Shown: piece by piece, positions 52,047 through 58,647 of the stretch
How the letters are laid out: each line of letters opens with the position of its first letter
Position numbering within the stretch: the first letter of the stretch is position 1
Assembly (NCBI GenBank): GCA_035653615.1
Contig: DASRBN010000003.1
Location: forward strand, 1-64,000
Direction of reading: 5' to 3'
Length of the DNA stretch: 64,000 nucleotides
Source: Ktedonobacteraceae bacterium
GTDB taxonomy: Bacteria; Chloroflexota; Ktedonobacteria; Ktedonobacterales; Ktedonobacteraceae
Made by a program: the position numbers and the translations under genes
Notes under the pieces: model-generated
Databases searched by the model: none
Told to the model about the DNA's origin: nothing
The model's input: the letters and a program-made list of their open reading frames with translations, nothing else

Positions 52047-55000
52047 TTACTCCACCACGACACTCATCAATCCTGGATTGCCCACTTGCTCCTCCTTGAA
52101 CATGTTGCGCACGATGACGGCCCAGTGCTGCCCATTCTCCCTGGCCTGCTCGCGGTCCGAGATGCCGAGCCAGCGCAGGAGATTTTGCTCCGCTTCTGCA
52201 TCTTTTAGCTGCGGCAAGCTGGTTGGGCTGATGGCAGCTAATGGTACGCGCAGTTCGTTTTTCTCGCAGAAATCCAGGCTGAAGCGTTTGACCTGGCCGC
52301 CACCAGCAATACGTGCCAGCGCGTCTGGGAGACAGACGTGCGCGATCAGGCCCGGCTCGTAACGCGGTACGCTGATGACGAGGTCAAGCGCGTCACCGGC
52401 CTTGAAGTGATCCTGCGCATGACCGCCGCGCTCCAGGCGAACCTTCACGGGCAAGCTGCTTTTGAAGGCGCTCCAGTCTTCAATGAACTCCGAGGTCACT
52501 TCCGCGGCTATAACCCCTTGCGTGCAGCGCAATGTCTCAACTTTGCCGCTGGAAGCCAGGGCCTCCGCCAGTGACATCTCCTGCCCATTGAGTTGCACGC
52601 GTCCGCCCTCGGCAGCGGACACGATACCTGACTCGCGCAGGCCCAGCATCAGGGCCAGGCATGCTGCCGTGTCTACCGTACTGTAGAGCCGTCCTTCCGC
52701 GTTCAACTGGCCGGTGAGGTAGTTGGTGGCTGCGATAACTTTTGGCAGATCGCTCGCCTCTTTTGTGGCAAGCAGGGCCGCCGCTGCGTAGGCGGTTTCC
52801 GCGCGTGTCGAAACGGCCATGCCGAAGAATTGCGGCATCGAACGGTCTGACTGCATTTCTACGTATGTCTGGCCGTTATGCTCGGTGAGACGCGAACGCA
52901 CGTATGCCGCCGCGTCATCCCTATCTTTCTGCGAGCTACTCTTCGTGAGAATCTGGTACGCGGACTGGCAATCGCTGATCTTTTCCGGTGGATTCTCGAT
53001 CTTGTAGTAGCTCGCCGCGTCCAGCGCCATGGCTGCGATATCGTCAAGCATTTCGCGCAGCGCCTGCTGTTTAATGCCCGCCTGGTCAGCTGATGGCAGC
53101 TTGAGCAGATTTTTCACGGCCATCGGCGCGTAGTGCGTATCGGGCTTGCGCGAGCCGCCCTCCTCCGGCGGGTAGAAGCAGAAACCGTGTTTCGGCAGGT
53201 ACATGCTCTTGAGGCGTTTATACCAGATCGGAATGGCGGCCTCGTATTCGCGAGCGACTTCAACATGTTCCATGTTGACGATATAGCCCGTGAACATGGC
53301 GAAGAGTTTGGTGGAGGTTTGCTCGACGCAGCCAAAAGGATACATCGCCGCGCCCTCCACGATGACCTGGAACGGCGCATCGAGTCCAGGCAGAGGCCGA
53401 ATCTCCAGCACGCGTGGTTCGCGGGCAGTGACCTCTTCACCCGGAGTCAGGATGTGCAGGTGGCGCACAATATGGCGCAATTTTCCCGGTTCGGTGACAT
53501 AGCGCTCGCTGGCATCGATGCCACCCTTGCGCGCATCACGTACTGTTGCCGTAATTGCCCCAGGCTTCACCGGAAAACGCACCACGGAGCCGGATGGAAT
53601 GGGTAGGCCGGGCGTGACCGCCTCACCATTCTCAAAAAACAGCGGGACGACCTCATTATCATGCCGCACTTCGACGATGGCACCGCCGGATGCCGCCCCA
53701 ACATCGAGCCTGCCCAATACAGGGTCGCCTGGGCGCACAAAAGGCGAGATGGTCAGCTCTCCGTAAACTGGTTGCACAGTATCAAGCGTGGTCTCAACTC
53801 GCTGCCAGTCCAGGCTATCGGGCGCAAGGGCAAAAGCCTCGATGCTGTAGCGCGTCATGCTATCCCCCAGCTTTACCTCAACGCTCGTTTCTCCCTGTAC
53901 CTTTACGATGTTGTTGTAGACAATCTCAGCAAATTGCAGCCGTAGCTGGGGCATTGCCTGGATCGTCTGAACGGGCGATGCGACGGCGACATTTGAGGTG
54001 GCCTGGGCAGTGGACGGCATAAATTGCCCCTCATTGGGTAATGCTGCCGCGGGGGGAAGGGGTCGAGCCGCGGCAGTGAATTGAGGTGCGATGACGGTTT
54101 GATCCAGGGGCATAGCCGCTACCAGGGGACGCACACCTCCCCCGTTGGCGGTGCGATACATGATACGTCTCGGCCCCACTTCTGACAGTTTGCGCTCGAC
54201 GGCACCGGTACGCGCCTGATCGCGCCATTGTGTGAGGTTTTGCTTGATGCGAGCGGCCAGTTCTACCTGTGGGTCTCCGGGAGCAACCAGGCGCTGATCC
54301 TTTACGATCAATTGCACCGGTATAACGCTACCGGCTTTGCCTGTTTTGAGCGTGATATGAATGCGCGCCCCGGGCTTCGCCTCTTTGGGAGCCTCGCAAT
54401 GCAGGTGAATGGTAGATGGTCGCAGCACGCTGCACCAGCCCTCCCAGGCCTTACCTTCGATGAACGCTCCCAGCAGCACGATGCCATAAGGTATGGGGAT
54501 GGGCAAATGCAGGCTCTTTTCCGCCTGCACATGCCTGTACAGGTGTTCCTCGCTGGTTCCGCGCGCGGGATCGACCACCACCACGCGCAGCAATTCAGCG
54601 TCGACACGCGCGGTAATTTCGACCTCGCTGCCAACCACGCGCTGCACCAGGAATGGCTCGGTGTTACTGCCGCCGCGCGAGATGTAGATGCCGCGGCAGG
54701 GATTCGATTGCGCCGAGGGCAACAGGCTGATCTCGCGTATCTCGCCCAGTTCGCTAATGACCAGGGTTTCGCGCCGGGCCTGCTCCGATCCCTTCAGGGC
54801 GACGGTGGCCGTGCGTTCTCCTGCGAAAATGTTCAGGGTATAGGGTCCGGCGCCGGTCAGCTTCACCACGCCCCGGCACAGGCCTTCGCGATTGCAGGTC
54901 AGTTTCTCGCGATTACCGGCCCGCTGCCCTCGCTCCTGCAATTCCACCTCTAGCGGGCCGCTGTAGGGCTGTCCAAAAGCAGTGACTTTCAGCACGTAGC

Positions 55001-55589
55001 GCAGTGTATTGCCACTCAAATTCTGCTCGGTCAACTCCGCGTTCAAGGGCGCTAATCGATACTCCGCGACCTCAAAATGGCAGAGGTCGCTATCCATGCC
55101 CTCGAGATCGGCTTCGTATCTGCCCTCCGGCAAGCCTTGCATCGACCAGAGGCAAAGCCCGAACTCATCCAGTGTGAATGGGTAGGTGGCATAGGGATTG
55201 CCGTTCAAACGCAGTGCCAGCTTCATACCGGCTTTGGGATGCTGCGGCGCGGTAATGAGCAGGCGCACAGTATCACGATTGGCTGCGTAGAGCGCCTTAT
55301 CGCTTGTGAGCGCGACCAGTTCCGGGCGCGGCACAGGCGAAGCCGCGATAGTTGCTCCTGGCAGCGCTATCTCGTCCTTTCCCCGGAAGAGAATCGCAGC
55401 CTGCGCCTCGCCCTGCTGGACGCCAGAGCTGGCCAGGACACGATCCATACCTGAACGAGCAAGCCAGTTCGCCTTGAGGAAGACAAACCATTTGCCTACC
55501 AGTGCGGCATCTCCAAGTCTTTCAACCAGCGCATAATCGGTAATATGTACAGAGGAATCATGGTCTACCTGTGGTGTTTGTGGTATCAT
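52047..55589 (-). CDS. Alpha-2-macroglobulin-like protein without signal peptide
   Basis: The 1180-residue protein has the key marks of the alpha-2-macroglobulin/complement family. The thioester motif is PFGCVEQTSTKLFA, with Cys754 and Gln757, and it is followed by an alpha-helical toroid-like region (YLPKHGFCFYPPEEGG, TRAETAYAAAALLATKEASD, STVDTAACLALMLGLRESG). Before it, repeated beta-sandwich segments (for example PVYGELTISPFVRPGDPVLG) resemble MG domains, with a Pro/Ala-rich insert near residue 520-545. Family members trap proteases and are normally lipoproteins or secreted. Here the N-terminus (MIPQTPQVDHDSSVHITDYA) has no signal or membrane helix. The start at 55589 has AAGGG six bases upstream; a start 14 codons earlier also gives no signal. 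Confidence 0.82.
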   Translation of the reverse strand: MIPQTPQVDHDSSVHITDYALVERLGDAALVGKWFVFLKANWLARSGMDRVLASSGVQQGEAQAAILFRGKDEIALPGATIAASPVPRPELVALTSDKALYAANRDTVRLLITAPQHPKAGMKLALRLNGNPYATYPFTLDEFGLCLWSMQGLPEGRYEADLEGMDSDLCHFEVAEYRLAPLNAELTEQNLSGNTLRYVLKVTAFGQPYSGPLEVELQERGQRAGNREKLTCNREGLCRGVVKLTGAGPYTLNIFAGERTATVALKGSEQARRETLVISELGEIREISLLPSAQSNPCRGIYISRGGSNTEPFLVQRVVGSEVEITARVDAELLRVVVVDPARGTSEEHLYRHVQAEKSLHLPIPIPYGIVLLGAFIEGKAWEGWCSVLRPSTIHLHCEAPKEAKPGARIHITLKTGKAGSVIPVQLIVKDQRLVAPGDPQVELAARIKQNLTQWRDQARTGAVERKLSEVGPRRIMYRTANGGGVRPLVAAMPLDQTVIAPQFTAAARPLPPAAALPNEGQFMPSTAQATSNVAVASPVQTIQAMPQLRLQFAEIVYNNIVKVQGETSVEVKLGDSMTRYSIEAFALAPDSLDWQRVETTLDTVQPVYGELTISPFVRPGDPVLGRLDVGAASGGAIVEVRHDNEVVPLFFENGEAVTPGLPIPSGSVVRFPVKPGAITATVRDARKGGIDASERYVTEPGKLRHIVRHLHILTPGEEVTAREPRVLEIRPLPGLDAPFQVIVEGAAMYPFGCVEQTSTKLFAMFTGYIVNMEHVEVAREYEAAIPIWYKRLKSMYLPKHGFCFYPPEEGGSRKPDTHYAPMAVKNLLKLPSADQAGIKQQALREMLDDIAAMALDAASYYKIENPPEKISDCQSAYQILTKSSSQKDRDDAAAYVRSRLTEHNGQTYVEMQSDRSMPQFFGMAVSTRAETAYAAAALLATKEASDLPKVIAATNYLTGQLNAEGRLYSTVDTAACLALMLGLRESGIVSAAEGGRVQLNGQEMSLAEALASSGKVETLRCTQGVIAAEVTSEFIEDWSAFKSSLPVKVRLERGGHAQDHFKAGDALDLVISVPRYEPGLIAHVCLPDALARIAGGGQVKRFSLDFCEKNELRVPLAAISPTSLPQLKDAEAEQNLLRWLGISDREQARENGQHWAVIVRNMFKEEQVGNPGLMSVVVE

Positions 55590-55931
55590 CTCAATCCCTT
55601 TCGTCTTCGCGAATGTCGTGCGTTTTGTCAAAAATCCATGACCGGTCCGTATGTTATTATGTACGTCACCTGCTGGGAGCAGTTGTACTGTTCCAGAAAA
55701 ATGATGAAAGCATGTCCATTATGTTGTCGGATTTACCTTACACTATGTTTGCCAAAAGCACAAGGGAGAATAGCAGGGATGAGGTGCCTTACAGCGTATA
55801 GTATAATAGACGAAATGCCAACACATTTCCATTTTTACGATTGAAGCGCCCGCAGGATAGCGGCAGCTACTAATCCTGCTATGCGATGGCTTGATATGCC
55901 CGCGTATCCTGTACAGAAGGAAAGATAACGA
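55590..55931. other. Divergent intergenic stretch with a -10 box
   Basis: The region separates the macroglobulin-like gene from the first S53 protease gene. A TATAAT lies at 55802-55807, 125 bases before the protease start, without a good -35 at the usual spacing. The other short frames here are not supported. A GGAAAG ribosome site precedes the protease gene. Confidence 0.4.
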
Positions 55932-57269
55932 ATGGTTCTGCATAAAGTGAAGCTAACATTTGTGTGTATCATTGCGCTGCTTCTCTTGCTGACTGCTTGC
56001 GCTCCGCCGGGCGGCAGTAGCGATGCGGGAACAACGCCTACACCGCGTGTTGTAAAGACGCCGACAGCTGCTGCCTCGCCCACCAGCACAACCGCCGATA
56101 TCTGCCCGGGCCAGTTGCGTTCTATCCCCAATTGCTTTACCCCTCATGCTCTACGCGTAGCCTATGGCATGGAGACCCTCACGGAGCAGGGATTTACCGG
56201 TAAGGGACAGACGGTCGTTGACATTGTCTCGTTTGGCAGCCCGACCTTGCAGCAAGACATGAATGTATTTGATCAGCAGTTTGGCCTGCCCTCGATCAAC
56301 GTTCAGGTGCTATCCCCAATCGGCACCAAACCGTTTGATCCCAACAATCAAGATATGGTGGGCTGGGCGGTTGAGACGGAACTGGATGTGCAGATCATTC
56401 ACGCTATGGCCCCGGATGCGGGTATTGTTGTGCTGACCAGCCCGGTTGACGAAACGGAGGGCACTATTGGCCTGCCTCAATTCCTCCAGTTGGAGCAATA
56501 CGCCGTCTCGCATCACCTGGGCCAGATTTTTTCGCAGAGCTTTGTAGCGACGGAGGTCACGCTTACCGATAGCGCCGGGCAAAAGCTGGTCAAGCAATTT
56601 GCCGACTTTTATCAGCAGGCTACGACACAGCAGGGATGGACAATCGTCTCGGGTTCGGGCGATCATGGCGCCACCGATTACTCGAATATTGCCGCCACGC
56701 AATTTTCGCCCACTCCCACCGTCGATTTCCCGGCGGATGTCCCCTGGGTAACTGCCGTGGGAGGCACAAGGCTTCAGCGGAACGGCAATGGTTTTACTGA
56801 AACGGCCTGGCCCGATAGTGGTGGTGGTATCAGCAAGTTCTTTGGTGAACCGGATTACCAGAAGAGCCTGCCTGCCGCAGTTCAGGGACAATTGAATGGT
56901 CATCGTGGTCTACCGGATGTAGCAGCTGATGCCGATCCCGCGACCGGCATGGCCTTTTATATCGGTGGGCAGTGGCAGCAGGTGGGAGGCACCAGCGCGA
57001 GTACGCCGCTCTGGGCGGGAATTATCGCCGTGGCTGATCAAATGGCCGGCCATCCCCTCGGCTTCATCAATCCTGGTATCTATAAAGTGGCTACCTCGCC
57101 CAGTGTGCAGCAGGATTTCCGCGATATCACTATTGGCAATAACAGTTTCTCACAGGGACAGGCCAGGGTTACCGGATTCGATGCGGTCCCGGGCTGGGAC
57201 CCTGTTACCGGCTGGGGCGCGCCCAATGCGCAAAAACTGCTGCCGGATTTGATTGCCGCCTTAAAATAA
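55932..57269 (+). CDS. S53 (sedolisin/kumamolisin-like) lipoprotein protease, copy 1
   Basis: The 445-residue protein has a lipoprotein signal (ALLLLLTACAPPGGSSDAG) and then, after a Thr/Pro linker, a sedolisin domain. The triad is Glu148 and Asp152 in VETELDVQIIHAM and Ser355 in GGTSASTPLWAG; the oxyanion aspartate lies in VSGSGDHGATDYS; the calcium site is at DPVTGWGAPNAQKLL. Sedolisins act in acid conditions outside the cell. The usual N-terminal prodomain of about 180 residues is missing, because the catalytic domain begins near residue 70 (HALRVAYGMETLTEQGFTGK). The segment normally SWG reads QSFVATEV. A close paralogue follows after 37 bases. Confidence 0.9.
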   Translation: MVLHKVKLTFVCIIALLLLLTACAPPGGSSDAGTTPTPRVVKTPTAAASPTSTTADICPGQLRSIPNCFTPHALRVAYGMETLTEQGFTGKGQTVVDIVSFGSPTLQQDMNVFDQQFGLPSINVQVLSPIGTKPFDPNNQDMVGWAVETELDVQIIHAMAPDAGIVVLTSPVDETEGTIGLPQFLQLEQYAVSHHLGQIFSQSFVATEVTLTDSAGQKLVKQFADFYQQATTQQGWTIVSGSGDHGATDYSNIAATQFSPTPTVDFPADVPWVTAVGGTRLQRNGNGFTETAWPDSGGGISKFFGEPDYQKSLPAAVQGQLNGHRGLPDVAADADPATGMAFYIGGQWQQVGGTSASTPLWAGIIAVADQMAGHPLGFINPGIYKVATSPSVQQDFRDITIGNNSFSQGQARVTGFDAVPGWDPVTGWGAPNAQKLLPDLIAALK

Positions 57270-57306
57270 GGAAACATCTCACAGAGACTGAAGGAGAACA
57301 CAAGGA

Positions 57307-58647
57307 ATGATGCAGAAAAATAGATTGTTCGCGCCTGTAGTGGTCCTGTTGCTACTCCTGATTTCAGCATGCGCGCCATTGGGAGGCAATACAGCAGCAG
57401 GTACGCCTACCCCCAGACCCACAAGGCAAGCGGTGAAAACCGGGAGTCCCACGCAGACTCCCGATGACACGATTACCGAGACATGCCCCGCGACCATTTT
57501 TAGCTCGCCAACTTGCCAGACTCCTCAGTCCTTGCGCGTTGCTTATGGAGTGGAATCGCTCATCCAGCGCGGTTATACCGGGAAGGGACAGACGGTGGTC
57601 GATATTGTTTCCTTTGGCAGTCCGACCTTGCAGCAAGATATGGATGTGTTCGATAAGCAATTTGGCCTGCCACCAATAACGATCAAGGTCATTTCGCCGA
57701 TCAATGAACCGCCCTATGACCCCAACGGCGACCGCGGCGGCTGGGCGCTCGAAACCGAACTGGACGTAGAGATCATTCATGCCATCGCTCCCGGCGCCGG
57801 AATCGTTGTGCTGGTGAGTCCCGTTGCTGAAACGGAGGGCACCGTTGGCCTACCCGAATTTCTGCAACTTGAGCAATACGCCCTCGATCATCACCTGGGT
57901 AACATCGTCTCACAGAGCTGGGGCGCATCCGAGGTGACATTGAAAGACTCCGCGGGGCAACAGGAGATACACAAATGGGATGCATTCTTCAAGCAGGCTA
58001 CCACCCAGGAGGGAATCAGCTTCTTCTCCGCTTCCGGCGATAATGGGGCCACCGATTATACCGACCTTCAGGCATCGAAACTCTCGCCTACTCCGACAAC
58101 CAGCTTCCCAGCCGACGATCCATGGGTTACCAGCGTTGGTGGAACGGCGTTGGATAGTTCTGGAGAAACCGCCTGGCATATGAGCGGCGGCGGGTTTAGC
58201 TCATTTTTCCCGGAACCCTCATTCCAGCAGACATTGCCGTCTGGCGACCAGGGCGAACTGAACCACCGGCGCGGTGTTCCTGATGTAGCCGCCGACGCCG
58301 ATCCCAACACGGGGCTGGCGATCTATACTGCCGGTCATTGGGACCTGGGCGGCGGCACCAGTGCCAGCACGCCTCTGTGGGCCGCCATCATGGCAATAGG
58401 CGATCAGATGGCGGGTCATCCGCTGGGTTACATCAATCCTACGCTCTACAAGCTGGCCGAATCCGGCAGCTACACGCAGGATTTCCACGACATTACGTCG
58501 GGCAACAATTCGGTCAGTAATAGTCAGGTGGATGTGCAGGGCTATAATGCCCTCCAGGGCTGGGACCCCATCACAGGCTGGGGCTCGCCCAACGCCGAAA
58601 AATTACTGCCCGCCCTCATTGCAGCCATGAACGGAGGAACCGCTTAG
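57307..58647 (+). CDS. S53 (sedolisin/kumamolisin-like) lipoprotein protease, copy 2
   Basis: The 446-residue protein is a tandem paralogue of the preceding gene with the same layout: lipoprotein signal (LLLLLISACAPLGGN), short linker, no prodomain, catalytic domain. The triad is Glu149 and Asp153 in LETELDVEIIHAI and Ser352 in GGTSASTPLWAAI; the oxyanion segment is SASGDNGATDYT and the calcium site is DPITGWGSPNAEKLL. The conserved SQSWGASEV is intact here, unlike in copy 1. AAGGAG and AAGGA precede the start. DNA identity to copy 1 is high around 57585-57670, pointing to duplication. Both genes are probably on one transcript. Confidence 0.9.
   Translation: MMQKNRLFAPVVVLLLLLISACAPLGGNTAAGTPTPRPTRQAVKTGSPTQTPDDTITETCPATIFSSPTCQTPQSLRVAYGVESLIQRGYTGKGQTVVDIVSFGSPTLQQDMDVFDKQFGLPPITIKVISPINEPPYDPNGDRGGWALETELDVEIIHAIAPGAGIVVLVSPVAETEGTVGLPEFLQLEQYALDHHLGNIVSQSWGASEVTLKDSAGQQEIHKWDAFFKQATTQEGISFFSASGDNGATDYTDLQASKLSPTPTTSFPADDPWVTSVGGTALDSSGETAWHMSGGGFSSFFPEPSFQQTLPSGDQGELNHRRGVPDVAADADPNTGLAIYTAGHWDLGGGTSASTPLWAAIMAIGDQMAGHPLGYINPTLYKLAESGSYTQDFHDITSGNNSVSNSQVDVQGYNALQGWDPITGWGSPNAEKLLPALIAAMNGGTA

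What the first reader, a model, noticed from the sequence alone, without database searches (positions are those of the whole stretch)
52047..55589. Very large thioester macroglobulin-like protein with no export signal
The protein keeps the CVEQ thioester motif (Cys754 to Gln757) and the helical domain after it. Bacterial alpha-2-macroglobulins trap proteases outside the inner membrane and carry a signal peptide or lipobox. Here neither of two possible starts gives a hydrophobic N-terminus. It may be cytoplasmic, exported by another route, or the thioester may do something else. It is next to two exported S53 proteases, which could be coincidence or a protease/inhibitor pairing.
Basis: partly seen in the sequence, partly recalled or inferred. 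Interest (0 to 1): 0.65.

Follow-up and report, generated by a model that had tools for sequence, protein, structure and literature searches.

The report
Leaderless bacterial alpha-2-macroglobulin (thioester protease trap)
Some soil bacteria of the Ktedonobacter group carry a shortened relative of the blood protease trap alpha-2-macroglobulin that keeps the bait-and-thioester parts but has no export signal, so it probably works inside the cell, where no bacterial member of this family is known to act.

Summary
Window 52047-55589 (-) encodes a 1180-residue protein with Cys754-Val-Glu-Gln757 and no signal peptide. Two further full-length members, from two other genera, agree: in-frame stops lie 6 and 9 codons upstream of their starts, so a mis-called start is not the cause. 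It is a divergent but real alpha-2-macroglobulin: profile match to canonical A2Ms (98%, E 2e-13), fold matches to human A2M, C3-C5 and Salmonella A2M, a hypervariable bait-like stretch, invariant CxEQ, and a C-terminal Met-Phe where canonical A2Ms have the thioester lock. All 41 complete canonical A2Ms checked in the phylum carry export signals and have 0.05-0.39% Cys; this family has none and 1.0-1.2% Cys. Best reading: a cytoplasmic A2M, a new variant of a known kind. The S53 neighbours are not pure coincidence: the order recurs in Ktedonosporobacter, and degraded A2M copies sit at the same spot in two further genomes. But the S53 genes are nearly universal in the class, persist where A2M has decayed, and A2M lies elsewhere in another family. 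Inherited position explains this as well as a protease/inhibitor pairing. Trapping activity, location and target are untested.

The parts
52047..55589 (-). Leaderless alpha-2-macroglobulin-like protein, 1180 aa, ATG start
55595..55600 (-). AAGGGA, plausible ribosome-binding site of the ATG start
   Evidence: read from sequence
54225..55307 (-). Beta-strand-rich MG-like domains, residues about 95-455
   Evidence: model, partly low confidence; Foldseek to A2M/C3/C5 across the length
53955..54227 (-). Bait-like region, residues about 455-545: Ala/Pro/Gly-rich, 1-3 identical columns per 30, many indels
   Evidence: conservation profile
53670..53945 (-). FxE...LGDS(M/L)TxYSIEA region, equivalent to the FPET...PDSITTW segment of A2M (Pfam PF00207)
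52620..53381 (-). Thioester-containing helical domain (TED), residues about 737-990
   Evidence: VIA Z 13.2 to human A2M, 250 residues, rmsd 4.0
53319..53330 (-). Thioester motif Cys754-Val-Glu-Gln757, preceded by invariant Tyr750
52071..52112 (-). C-terminal VRNMFKEEQVGNPG (residues 1160-1173); Met1163-Phe1164 sits where canonical A2Ms have the Met-Tyr lock over the thioester
   Evidence: lock described in PMC4498604
55932..57269 (+). S53a: kumamolisin-like lipoprotein peptidase without prodomain, divergent neighbour
57307..58647 (+). S53b: second S53 lipoprotein peptidase

Best explanation
The gene encodes a shortened type-I-like alpha-2-macroglobulin that stays in the cytoplasm. Inferred mechanism: the protein folds with a buried Cys754-Gln757 thioester shielded by aromatic residues before the motif (Tyr750, Phe752) and by Met1163-Phe1164 of the C-terminal domain. 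A protease cuts the flexible bait stretch (about 455-545), the domains shift, the thioester is exposed and the protease is covalently trapped. Acting inside the cell, it would guard the cytosol, or be released as a trap on lysis. Shown here: homology, motif and lock conservation, bait-like variability, conserved lack of an export signal, cysteine content typical of cytosolic proteins. Inferred: thioester formation, location, trapping, target.
For: Profile-profile match to canonical Chloroflexota A2Ms 98%, E 1.9e-13, covering residues 542-809 including CxEQ. Foldseek with the whole model: the 38 best chains are all A2M-family or complement structures, Salmonella A2M among them; TED model Z 13.2 to human A2M. 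CxEQ and Tyr(-4) invariant in four relatives, VRNMFKEEQ likewise. Hypervariable, indel-rich stretch directly before the FPE motif, where the bait region lies. Relatives' starts: in-frame stops 9 and 6 codons upstream, GGAGG before the K. rubrisoli ATG. 41 of 41 complete canonical A2M ORFs of the phylum have a hydrophobic leader, lipobox or Tat-lipobox, and at most 0.39% Cys, while this family has 12-14 Cys (1.0-1.2%), eight of them invariant in all three full-length members. No conserved transmembrane segment.
Against: No experiment. Export without a signal peptide cannot be excluded. The family is rare (intact or partial in 4 of 47 genomes of the class) and decayed in three more, so it is dispensable. 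The TED lacks about 37 residues found in canonical members, which might affect thioester chemistry. Models have low mean confidence (pLDDT 45 and 61). Charged-residue content does not separate it from exported A2Ms; only cysteine does.
Confidence: 0.55

Rival explanations
1. It is the dedicated inhibitor or immunity protein of the adjacent S53 pair: the S53 enzymes lack the usual inhibitory prodomain, and cytosolic A2M traps copies that fold before export.
For: Divergent S53b-S53a/A2M order in the window and in K. rubrisoli, remnants at the same place in G013 and G001. S53s align only to mature kumamolisin, not to its about 188-residue prodomain, and keep the E/D/D/S residues.
Against: 45 of 47 genomes of the class hold S53 relatives of this type but few hold A2M. 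S53 genes stay intact beside decayed A2M. In G030 A2M has no S53 within about 6-10 kb, and in G010 the S53/CHAP locus lacks it. S53 peptidases are generally acid-active (general knowledge), so little activity is expected in the cytosol.
Confidence: 0.15
2. It is exported by a signal-less route or released by lysis, and acts outside like other bacterial A2Ms.
For: The characterised bacterial A2Ms in the papers read act outside the cytoplasm (PMC3328433, PMC4498604, PMC5764988). In K. rubrisoli it is followed by a CHAP-domain cell-wall hydrolase gene.
Against: Many conserved cysteines; no signal, no conserved transmembrane segment; the CHAP gene is present in the class without A2M.
Confidence: 0.2
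3. The thioester scaffold has been turned to another use, such as covalent tagging of intracellular targets (compare cytosolic human C3), not protease trapping.
For: A His-containing D-(T/H)-(H/F)-(Y/W)-A-P motif aligns near the region of the transacylation residue of C3 (approximate alignment; position in C3 from general knowledge); cytosolic C3 tags invading bacteria (PMC9095555).
Against: A bait-like hypervariable stretch is kept, as expected for a trap. The His is not at one fixed column.
Confidence: 0.1

Closest known systems
Type I bacterial A2M (E. coli ECAM/YfhM, Salmonella SaA2M)
   Same: MG-like domains, bait region, CxEQ thioester domain, C-terminal MG with Met-aromatic lock, fold matches
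   Different: No signal peptide or lipobox, 1180 instead of about 1650 residues, no pbpC partner seen, Cys-rich, Pfam scores near or below cut-off
Canonical Chloroflexota A2Ms (e.g. G313, G182)
   Same: Same MG7-TED segment order; aligned over residues 542-809
   Different: Canonical ones carry a leader, lipobox or Tat-lipobox and 1-8 Cys; the one scanned (G313) has full Pfam MG2/BRD/TED/receptor domains; none found in the class Ktedonobacteria
Cytosolic human complement C3 (alternative start)
   Same: Thioester superfamily member without signal peptide in a reducing compartment
   Different: Isoform of a secreted protein; here the gene itself is leaderless throughout the family
Type II bacterial A2M (MagD)
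   Same: Bacterial macroglobulin with a bait region
   Different: MagD lacks CxEQ, is periplasmic and sits in a six-gene operon

Membership tests
Alpha-2-macroglobulin superfamily | Macroglobulin / TED fold | tested here: met
   Foldseek and VIA-align top matches; hhalign 98%, E 1.9e-13
Alpha-2-macroglobulin superfamily | Curated family score (Pfam PF00207, PF07678; NCBIfam) | tested here: inconclusive
   PF00207 20.3 bits against 21, 23.2 and over cut-off in the genome search; PF07678 below cut-off; NCBIfam none
Type I bacterial A2M | CxEQ motif at the start of the TED | tested here: met
   Invariant in four relatives
Type I bacterial A2M | Bait region before the FPE motif | tested here: met
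   Position and hypervariability only; cleavage not tested
Type I bacterial A2M | Signal peptide or lipobox, location outside the inner membrane | tested here: not met
   None from any start in three genera; 41 of 41 canonical controls have one
Type I bacterial A2M | pbpC (PBP1c) neighbour | tested here: not met
   Neighbours are glucokinase and S53 in the window, S53 and CHAP in K. rubrisoli
Type I bacterial A2M | Methylamine-reactive thioester, covalent protease trapping | not testable with these tools
   needs purified protein
S53 peptidase (neighbours) | Kumamolisin homology and E/D/D/S catalytic residues | tested here: met
S53 peptidase (neighbours) | N-terminal inhibitory prodomain | tested here: not met
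   Match to prokumamolisin 1t1e begins at chain residue 189; only about 65 residues precede it in the query

The most novel reading that the evidence does not exclude
A bacterial complement-like thioester protein that works in the cytoplasm as an intracellular protease trap, guarding the cytosol, possibly against the cell's own prodomain-less S53 proteases.
Probability: 0.4. Interest if true: 0.75.

Novelty: new variant of a known kind. Interest (0 to 1): 0.52.

Why it matters
The bacterial macroglobulins described in the papers read here are exported guards of the periplasm. A conserved leaderless branch with the trap parts kept would show that bacteria also use thioester traps inside the cell, a parallel to cytosolic C3 in human cells, and would give a compact protein for studying thioester chemistry in a reducing compartment.

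Tried and rejected
Mis-called start or frameshift hiding a signal: rejected. Unrelated protein with a chance CVEQ: rejected by profile and fold comparison. phmmer of the single sequence against PDB and the NCBIfam scan found nothing; the four-sequence profile reached human A2M only at E about 0.001. No relatives in plasmids or viral contigs and no PADLOC defence family. Charged and polar amino-acid composition did not discriminate location. S53 tree labels (A2M present / remnant) do not cluster beyond shuffles, so A2M presence does not mark a distinct S53 clade. Laying the whole genome in the Python box was not available. A shared 11-mer in the intergenic region is too weak to use.

Full report
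Observation. The minus-strand ORF 52047-55631 encodes the protein; ATG 55589 is the likely start, with AAGGGA upstream. CxEQ is at 754-757. From ATG or TTG there is no hydrophobic segment, and no other frame upstream supplies one.

Relatives. Searching 61 relatives, the class (47 genomes) and 400 genomes of the phylum found full-length relatives only in Ktedonosporobacter rubrisoli (G004, 58% identity) and in G030 of another family of the order (52%). G010 has a relative cut by a contig end (65%). G013 (about 60 N-terminal residues joined closely to the last 66-70), G001 (about 49 residues) and G003 (24 residues) hold remnants. In K. rubrisoli an in-frame stop lies 9 codons before the ATG, with GGAGG in front of the start; in G030 the stop is 6 codons before it. 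The lack of a signal is therefore real and conserved.

What it is. Pfam sees only weak PF00207 and TED matches. Profile-profile comparison with three canonical Chloroflexota A2Ms gives 98%, E 1.9e-13 over the FPE-MG7-CUB-TED stretch. The full-length model is poor (pLDDT 45) but its best 38 Foldseek matches are all A2M-family or complement structures; the thioester-domain model (pLDDT 61 overall, most helical blocks 65-92) matches human A2M at Z 13.2 over 250 residues. The tool warns that helical folds can reach such Z by chance, but whole-length matches and motifs agree. YP(F/Y/H)GC(V/I)EQ(T/S)S, the LGD(S/A)(L/M)T segment and the terminal NMFKEEQxGNPG line up with the canonical P(Y/F)(G/A)CxEQ, (P/A)DS(I/L)TTW and (M/Y)Yx(P)(E/D) motifs. 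In SaA2M the equivalent Tyr and Met-Tyr residues shield the thioester (PMC4498604). The stretch 455-545 has 1-3 identical columns in 30, against about 10-20 on either side, and many gaps, as a bait region would. The TED is about 37 residues shorter than in canonical members.

Location. As a control, 42 canonical A2M ORFs from other Chloroflexota were read; 41 have a closed 5' end. All 41 show an export signal: 38 by a hydrophobic 15-mer of mean 1.9 or more, and three by Tat-lipobox sequences read by eye. Cysteine content of the 42 is 0.05-0.39%. This family has 1.0-1.2% Cys, eight positions invariant among three full-length members. Proteins exported to an oxidising environment usually avoid free cysteines (general knowledge), so a cytoplasmic site is favoured, not proved. 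No canonical A2M was found in the class.

Neighbourhood. In the window and in K. rubrisoli, A2M is divergent from two S53 lipoprotein genes. The remnants in G013 and G001 lie between the same S53 pair and a CHAP gene, and the G003 remnant lies beside the CHAP gene. So the likely ancestral order was [S53b S53a]<->[A2M CHAP]. But in nine genomes an S53 gene or pair faces CHAP without A2M between, 45 of 47 genomes have S53 relatives, G030 has A2M without S53 nearby, and the G010 S53/CHAP locus has no A2M. The association may be inherited position. The S53s have catalytic residues but no prodomain, which keeps the immunity idea open.

Known work. Papers read describe bacterial A2Ms as exported, membrane-anchored or periplasmic. 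No paper in the library joins Ktedonobacter and macroglobulin. A leaderless cytosolic C3 exists in human cells. I rate this a new variant of a known kind.

Noticed in passing
window 55932-58647; L009, L010, L013, L057-L072: Class-wide locus of prodomain-less kumamolisin-like lipoproteins facing a CHAP-domain hydrolase gene and a small Cys-rich protein of about 115 residues; function unknown.
   Followed up: partly
L010 8031-8467; L013 4787-4933; L055 2266-2337: Three remnants of the A2M-like gene at different stages of decay at or next to the same locus.
   Followed up: yes
window 55735-55745 (-): TAGTGTAAGGT shared with the K. rubrisoli A2M/S53a intergenic region; possibly a promoter or operator, possibly chance.
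   Followed up: partly
L057, L012 (genome G010): A2M-like gene near an LLM-class (F420-type) oxidoreductase-like gene on a short contig; the S53/CHAP locus of this genome lacks A2M.
   Followed up: partly
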